Source of the DNA: Bacteroidales bacterium
Lineage (GTDB): Bacteria; Bacteroidota; Bacteroidia; Bacteroidales; P3
Reading direction: 5' to 3'
DNA: 64,000 nt
Assembly: GCA_024681475.1 (NCBI GenBank)
Contig: JAILAT010000049.1
Location: 62,001-126,000 of the forward strand
Below are positions 3,084 to 3,245 of this stretch, in pieces. Under the pieces are notes generated by a model, which searched no databases, had not been told where the DNA came from, and saw nothing but the letters and a program-made list of their open reading frames with translations. The translations under genes and the position numbers were made by a program. The first letter of the stretch is position 1; each line of letters opens with the position of its first letter.

Positions 3084-3245
3084 TCAAAGCCATACGCTGA
3101 AAGTATGGACCCGCCGAATTACAAACATTTCTGTTTGTACCCACCAAGTGAGGCAGCAGGCGTACCAGGCTGCTAACAGCCTGGATGTTCTAATTCAGAA
3201 CAGGAATGACAATCGTTTCAAAGGTCTCTCTGGCTTTGGCTTTGA
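3084..3245 (-). ncRNA. Candidate retron msr-msd ncRNA (a1 at 3238-3245, a2 at 3084-3091)
   Basis: Perfect 8-bp inverted repeat ggctttga(3238-3245)/tcaaagcc(3084-3091) encloses hairpins: GTTCTaattcAGAAC, CCAGGCTGctaaCAGCCTGG, ACAAACAtttcTGTTTGT, CATACgctgaaaGTATG. On the transcript strand an AGC follows a1 and GCCTGCTG/CGGCGGGT (with GU) can form the msd stem. Sits directly upstream of the RT. Confidence 0.8.

What the first reader, a model, noticed from the sequence alone, without database searches (positions are those of the whole stretch)
3084..3245. Manually identified retron msr-msd ncRNA upstream of an NAxxH/VTG-motif RT
Sequence: perfect 8-bp inverted repeat (3084-3091 / 3238-3245) encloses ~160 nt packed with stem-loops; on the RT-coding strand the order is promoter, a1, AGC, msr hairpins, a long msd-like stem (GCCTGCTG/CGGCGGGT with an inner ACAAACA/TGTTTGT hairpin), a2, then RT. 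Knowledge: this matches the canonical retron layout, and NAxxH and VTG are retron RT hallmarks. Inference: this is an uncharacterised Bacteroidales retron making its own msDNA, probably anti-phage.
Basis: partly seen in the sequence, partly recalled or inferred. Interest (0 to 1): 0.88.

Follow-up and report, generated by a model that had tools for sequence, protein, structure and literature searches.

The report
Bacteroidales retron with swappable HEPN-like toxin
This is a genuine bacterial retron (an RNA that a reverse transcriptase copies into DNA, usually an anti-virus alarm), but its RNA gene is almost twice as long as first drawn, and its partner toxin comes from an undescribed HEPN-like family whose toxic part is exchanged between close relatives while the alarm part and a short connector stay the same.

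Summary
The finding is a real retron, but its anatomy was drawn wrongly. The true a1/a2 stem is window 3203-3224/2951-2972 (minus strand): 22-nt arms, 7 of 11 core pairs with compensatory changes, pairing probability 1.00. The msr-msd RNA therefore spans about 2951-3224, ending 20 nt before the RT gene. A conserved ATTAGA (candidate priming G at 3190) follows a1, and TCTGAAGTAAT precedes a2. The "long msd stem" is an msr hairpin. The RT (1485-2930) scores best against retron types XI/XII, but is fused to neither protease nor TIR. It encodes a protein absent from Pfam, PADLOC and NCBIfam: a two-helix leader, an all-helical HEPN-like domain (RNLNHR) and an OB fold. In relatives with 93-100% identical ncRNA and RT, the leader persists while the toxin body falls to 24-41% identity. 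RT tails and leaders covary. The same ncRNA/RT lineage also carries DnaB-like ATPases and HisKin-conflict proteins. I read it as a retron platform re-armed with different effectors through a tail-leader dock. msDNA, toxicity and defence are untested.

The parts
3290..3321 (-). Bacteroidota-type promoter, TTTG-N20-TATCTTTG
   Evidence: pattern search, 4 in window vs 0.67 expected; TATCTTTG-like box kept in relatives
3251..3276 (-). leader hairpin GAGAG...CTCTC between promoter and a1, outside the retron stem; role unknown
   Evidence: seen by eye in L177, L184, L186, L018-L021, L179, L191; no pair count made
3203..3224 (-). a1 arm of the msr-msd terminal stem
   Evidence: the repeat finder I1; covariation; pair probability 0.997
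3189..3193 (-). TTAGA, candidate priming guanosine at 3190
   Evidence: invariant in all 16 aligned loci; priming-G contexts TAGC/CAGA from PMC6868368
3165..3184 (-). msr hairpin SL1
   Evidence: hairpin at this place in the relatives though its sequence changes completely
   Evidence: 8-bp stem 98% paired in 16 loci; alignment A4
3091..3108 (-). msr hairpin SL3
   Evidence: individual folds and window fold
2986..3090 (-). approximate msd template; msDNA would read along the + strand from about 2986
   Evidence: inferred from a1/a2, TTAGA and TCTGAAGTAAT; both ends unmeasured
2981..2991 (-). TCTGAAGTAAT, conserved start-of-template motif just inside a2
   Evidence: TGAAGTAA invariant in 16 loci
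2951..2972 (-). a2 arm of the terminal stem
1485..2930 (-). retron reverse transcriptase, 481 aa; NARVH 2325-2339, YADD 2037-2048, VTG 1887-1895
   Evidence: PADLOC RT_XI 356 bits, RT_XII 340; NCBIfam retron 297 vs group II 85 bits; A2
1488..1553 (-). RT C-terminal tail (last 22 aa, ...LVEDLNASLDAIINNYG), proposed effector dock
   Evidence: covaries with effector leader
548..1492 (-). effector gene, 314 aa, overlapping the RT gene by 8 nt
   Evidence: no known family; next to the RT in relatives; model pLDDT 88
1400..1492 (-). effector leader, residues 1-31, two helices, proposed dock
   Evidence: AF2 model; 87-100% kept while body is mostly 24-41% in L018-L021
752..1363 (-). HEPN-like helical domain, residues 44-247, RNLNHR at 875-892
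   Evidence: AF2 pLDDT 93; profile-profile to RNx4H bodies; Foldseek best hit Csm6, not significant
557..751 (-). C-terminal OB fold, residues 248-312
   Evidence: Foldseek IF1/PAN-N OB folds, E about 0.02-0.05

Best explanation
The locus is a three-part retron operon read on the minus strand: msr-msd RNA (about 2951-3224), RT, then a HEPN-like effector. Shown by sequence: the covarying a1/a2 stem, conserved inner motifs, retron-type RT, and an effector gene coupled to the RT gene. Inferred by analogy with characterised retrons: the RT primes from G3190 and copies the msd into an msDNA of roughly 100 nt; the RT-msr-msDNA complex holds the effector inactive; phage interference with the msDNA frees or activates it; the HEPN-like domain then cleaves RNA and stops growth. 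Proposed here from the pattern of exchange: the effector is held by its N-terminal two-helix leader bound to the RT's C-terminal tail, so the toxic body behind the leader can be replaced without rebuilding the sensor.
For: RT: retron profiles far above group II, DRT and Abi; solved-structure hits are retron RTs first (Ec67 8e-39, Ec86 2e-35) and group II at 2e-10; NAxxH and VTG present. ncRNA: a1/a2 covariation, pair probability 0.997, the same layout in every locus with RT at least 52% identical except L187 (L005 diverged), model R1 finds 16 loci at E<1e-16 and then drops to 0.008. Effector: adjacent to the RT in relatives; searched on its own in 395 Bacteroidales genomes it matches 6, and in 5 it lies beside the RT. 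HEPN: RNx(2-4)H in most of the swapped bodies, bodies homologous by hhalign (98%, 97%, 94%), one of them (L038) weakly hits three HEPN-type Pfam models. Exchange: L020 vs L021 ncRNA 100%, RT 95%, leader 93%, body 24%. Tail-leader covary after removing RT similarity: r 0.51, p 0.001; tail-body given leader: r 0.00; no pair of 630 has a similar tail with a dissimilar leader.
Against: No msDNA, toxicity or defence data. The HEPN core has no significant Foldseek match (best Csm6, E 0.72), and the window's motif is RxxxH, one residue shorter than the usual RxxxxH. The RT tail and effector leader are neighbours in DNA, so their covariation could partly be linkage during recombination rather than contact. 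The tail/leader classes were read by eye after seeing the data. The msd of this copy is AT-rich with only a weak hairpin.
Confidence: 0.8

Rival explanations
1. The retron is real but the downstream protein is not a HEPN RNase; it is some other helical effector or an adaptor, with the OB fold as the functional part (for example binding msDNA or RNA).
For: No significant fold or family match for the helical domain; shortened motif RNLNH; an OB fold at the C-terminus.
Against: Related bodies carry RNx4H in the same place; profile-profile homology joins them; the best PDB fold hits include Csm6 and a HEPN toxin; many relatives lack the OB part.
Confidence: 0.17
2. One reading: ncRNA 3084-3245 closed by the 8-bp repeat, with AGC as branch site and the 3109-3161 stem as msd.
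For: The repeat is perfect and the enclosed region folds well.
Against: No covariation, pair probability 0.00 against 0.997 for the other stem; the 3109-3161 stem is a conserved msr hairpin in relatives.
Confidence: 0.02
3. Tail-leader covariation reflects shared recombination tracts between neighbouring gene ends, not a protein dock.
For: The two segments lie next to each other or overlap in DNA; other breakpoints exist (L001 vs L177 breaks inside the RT tail).
Against: Breaks recur behind the leader and none was seen between tail and leader; the DnaB-type effectors have no such leader and their RTs lack the motif-bearing tails.
Confidence: 0.35
4. A decayed or inactive retron remnant.
For: MAG sequence only; AT-rich weak msd hairpin.
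Against: Both genes intact, YADD and NAxxH kept, promoter and a1/a2 conserved, relatives 87-96% identical in many metagenomes.
Confidence: 0.04

Closest known systems
Type XI (RT-protease) and type XII (RT-TIR) retrons
   Same: Nearest RT profiles in PADLOC (356 and 340 bits).
   Different: Those are single-gene fusions; here the RT ends in a short tail and the effector is a separate HEPN-like/OB protein. The PADLOC match covers RT residues 127-445 only.
Type IX retron Kva2 (PMC13405049, 2026 preprint)
   Same: Also uses a HEPN RNase as toxin, held in an RT-msDNA complex.
   Different: Kva2 has a 19-kDa HEPN with no canonical motif plus a winged-helix protein. Here one 314-aa protein has a leader, an RNLNHR motif and an OB fold, no winged-helix gene is present, and the RT is far closer to XI/XII than to IX (356 vs 188 bits).
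Retron-Eco1 (Ec86) and Retron-Eco2 (Ec67)
   Same: Layout a1, priming G, msr hairpins, msd, a2, RT; NAxxH and VTG; closest solved RT structures. Eco2 also has A after the priming G (CAGA, PMC6868368).
   Different: Effectors are ribosyltransferase-type (Ec86) and Toprim (Ec67); ncRNA sequence unrelated; no Rfam match.
Retrons whose effector was replaced by HipA/DUF3037 (PMC12548924)
   Same: Shows that retrons can change effectors.
   Different: There a whole module was replaced; here the toxin body changes behind a conserved leader, repeatedly, among near-identical RTs.

Membership tests
retron | retron-type RT with NAxxH (region X) and VTG (region Y) | tested here: met
   NARVH and EVTG, conserved in A2; profiles
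retron | ncRNA with complementary 5' and 3' ends (8-30 nt) next to a priming G | tested here: met
   22-nt arms, covariation; invariant TTAGA inside a1; definition from PMC6868368
retron | msDNA with 2'-5' linked RNA and DNA | not testable with these tools
   needs msDNA extraction
retron | effector gene in the same operon | tested here: met
   8-nt overlap with the RT gene; association in relatives
retron type XI | RT fused to a protease domain | tested here: not met
   RT is 481 aa and matches the profile over the RT part only; no protease domain
retron type XII | RT fused to a TIR domain | tested here: not met
   no TIR; NCBIfam 297 bits below cut-off 600
retron type IX | type IX RT with separate HEPN and winged-helix genes | tested here: not met
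   RT_IX 188 bits against XI 356; one downstream effector gene, no winged helix seen
HEPN RNase superfamily | RxxxxH motif before the last long helix | tested here: inconclusive
   window RNLNH (Rx3H); homologous bodies have Rx4H
HEPN RNase superfamily | HEPN four-helix fold | tested here: inconclusive
   confident all-helical model, best PDB hit Csm6 but E 0.72
HEPN RNase superfamily | metal-independent RNase activity | not testable with these tools
   needs assay
DGR, group II intron, Abi/DRT RT | best match to those RT families | tested here: not met
   group II 85 bits, Drt3a 50, AbiA 16 against retron 297; no DGR profile appeared

The most novel reading that the evidence does not exclude
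A Bacteroidota retron lineage works as a plug-in immune platform: one conserved RT-ncRNA sensor is repeatedly re-armed with different toxins (several HEPN-like bodies, and in sister lineages DnaB-like ATPases or HisKin-conflict proteins) through a matched pair of docking elements, the RT's C-terminal tail and the effector's N-terminal two-helix leader.
Probability: 0.45. Interest if true: 0.75.

Novelty: new variant of a known kind. Interest (0 to 1): 0.57.

Why it matters
How retron RT-msDNA complexes hold and release their toxins is worked out for only a few systems, almost all from Enterobacteriaceae. This lineage supplies natural swap experiments (identical ncRNA, 95% identical RT, unrelated-looking toxin body) and points to a short tail and a short leader as the contact to test. 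It also adds an effector family absent from Pfam, PADLOC and NCBIfam and an ncRNA family absent from Rfam, and it gives corrected boundaries without which an msDNA experiment on this locus would use the wrong RNA.

Tried and rejected
Type IX membership because of HEPN (rejected on RT profile and missing winged helix). Type XI/XII membership (no fusion). Rfam: no retron family reached its gathering score. PDB by sequence with the effector profile: nothing. Plasmid collection: no effector homologue. Phage collection: only RTs below 40% identity. Anchor motifs TTAG/GTAA in the 45%-identical RT loci: not found there, although many of those loci have their own long inverted repeat in the same place (about two thirds of those examined beat a small null of 6 shuffles each). 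MAFFT could not align hairpin SL1, so its covariation was not counted; it rests on separate folds.

Full report
Setting. The window lies in a 2.38-Mb Bacteroidales MAG (G000:C54:62001-126000). The locus is on the minus strand: promoter 3321-3290, ncRNA, RT 2930-1485, effector 1492-548.

The observation. The 8-bp perfect repeat 3084-3091/3238-3245 exists, but inverted repeats of this size are common in this stretch (16 pairs in 490 nt).

Covariation. I collected RT relatives from GTDB genomes and viral contigs and aligned 16 upstream regions (A4). RNAalifold found the a1/a2 stem without being told of it. Counted directly, the a1/a2 helix has 94% of cells paired and 7 of 11 pairs changed on both sides; together with SL2, 0 of 500 shuffles and no slid version come near. 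Inside a1 is the invariant ATTAGA; inside a2 is the nearly invariant TCTGAAGTAAT. A 2019 review gives a1/a2 of 8-30 nt, a priming G usually in TAGC but CAGA in Eco2, and the NAXXH and VTG marks (PMC6868368). The priming G is therefore most likely G3190 in TTAGA. The order inside is SL1, SL2, SL3, then the msd. SL1 changes its sequence completely between relatives while a hairpin stays. A covariance model of the 5' part finds 16 loci at E<1e-16, all with RT at least 52% identical, and then falls to E 0.008 (L187). Many of the more distant RT loci (about 45%) have their own inverted repeat in the same position with different inner motifs, which I take as the same architecture further diverged.

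The RT. It is 481 aa with NARVH, YADD and VTG. The best PADLOC profiles are RT-Protease XI (356 bits) and RT-TIR XII (340), with IX at 188. NCBIfam gives retron 297 bits against group II 85, Drt3a 50 and AbiA 16. Solved retron RTs (Ec67, Ec86) precede group II enzymes by about 25 orders of magnitude in E-value.

The effector. The overlapping downstream gene encodes 314 aa with no match in Pfam, PADLOC or NCBIfam. AlphaFold2 gives pLDDT 88: two helices (1-31), a disordered linker (32-42), a helical domain (44-247), and an OB fold (248-312; Foldseek IF1 and PAN N-domain, E 0.02-0.05). The helical domain alone (pLDDT 93) has no significant PDB match, but the best is the HEPN RNase Csm6 and a HEPN toxin is seventh. 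Invariant residues cluster around D83/E88, Q106-x-E108 and R201-N-x-N-H205-R. Homologous bodies in related operons carry RNx4H-type motifs, the usual HEPN form. hhalign joins the body families: 98% for A with C, 97% for A with F, 94% for A with E (pairwise, not database, values). One of the bodies, L038, weakly hits HEPN_Apea, HEPN_Swt1 and DUF4145. I judge HEPN membership likely (about 0.8) but not proven.

Association. Searched independently in 395 Bacteroidales genomes, the effector profile matched 6; in 5 of these (G000, G199, G438, G109, G245) it lies beside the RT, and the sixth is a partial match to a 570-aa frame. A 47-kb viral contig also carries the pair (L104/L200).

Exchange. L020 and L021 have identical ncRNA, 95% identical RT and 93% identical leaders, but bodies 24% identical; most other pairs among L018-L021 give the same picture (bodies 24-41%; L019 with L020 is 66%). 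P0001/P0002 against P0010/P0220: RT 88%, last 20 RT residues 95%, leader 100%, body 27%. (These P pairs, other than P0016/P0164 which is locus L177, were matched by equal contig length, an inference.) Window against L177: ncRNA 96%, RT core 94%, RT tail 24%, leader 67%, body 39%. Over 36 loci, tail and leader similarity correlate after removing RT similarity (r 0.51, p 0.001), while tail and body do not once leader is removed (r 0.00). No pair of 630 has a similar tail with a dissimilar leader, while 15 have similar tail and leader with a dissimilar body. By eye there are at least four matched classes, for example RT tail LNxxLDxLL with leader IxKIxxLxxQNxEF, and tail FDLSIL with leader LLDFIx...NxWF; these were drawn after seeing the data. 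Because tail and leader are adjacent in DNA, linkage is a serious rival to physical contact.

A wider platform. In the RT tree the window falls in a fully supported 18-row clade. Those rows carry HEPN-like bodies (9), DnaB_C ATPases (4) and HisKin-conflict proteins (PF22561), separate (2) or fused (2), with one row whose downstream gene is off the contig; all but L005 and L187 share the ncRNA family. Over 83 rows the effector label needs at least 30 changes.

Mechanism. Shown: RNA structure, RT type, operon, effector domains, exchange. By analogy with other retrons: msDNA synthesis from the priming G, toxin neutralised by the RT-msDNA complex and released by phage. The closest mechanistic precedent is type IX Kva2, where a HEPN dimer is held in the RT-msDNA complex and cleaves tRNA once triggered (PMC13405049), but the RT, gene set and HEPN motif differ. 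Proposed here: tail-leader docking.

Verdict. A real retron with corrected boundaries, carrying an undescribed HEPN-like effector family on an XI/XII-like RT: a new variant of a known kind.

Noticed in passing
window 3251-3276 (-): A hairpin GAGAG...CTCTC between promoter and a1, kept in several relatives (L177, L184, L186, L018-L021, L179, L191) although outside the retron stem; role unknown.
   Followed up: partly
L091:486-2285: A 599-aa RT (Chitinophagia MAG) whose own reading frame weakly matches the effector profile (E 0.001) and holds RIIRNFSSHRE: perhaps an RT-HEPN fusion.
   Followed up: no
L177 and L192 (G071:C21): Two retrons of this lineage about 11 kb apart on one contig; G571 has three such RTs.
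   Followed up: no
L181, L182, L183, L185: Same ncRNA family and RT clade but followed by a DnaB_C-like ATPase as likely effector, with RTs lacking the motif-bearing tail; absent from PADLOC as tested for L181.
   Followed up: partly
L006, L023, L187 and L022, L027, L043: RTs fused to, or followed by, PF22561 (HisKin-conflict) proteins; the separate forms tested (L022, L027, L043) have no PADLOC match.
   Followed up: partly
window 4116-6371 (-): YhcG/DUF1016 PDDEXK nuclease (PADLOC PDC-S02) and a WYL-domain regulator next to the retron, as in a defence island.
   Followed up: partly
L201:9125-12481 (-), reaching window 1-481: 1118-aa protein with weak BspA-type leucine-rich repeat match just downstream of the effector gene; probably not part of the retron.
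   Followed up: partly
L104 / L200 (IMGVR_UViG_3300014039_000545): A 47-kb contig called viral carries an RT of this kind with a homologous effector.
   Followed up: no
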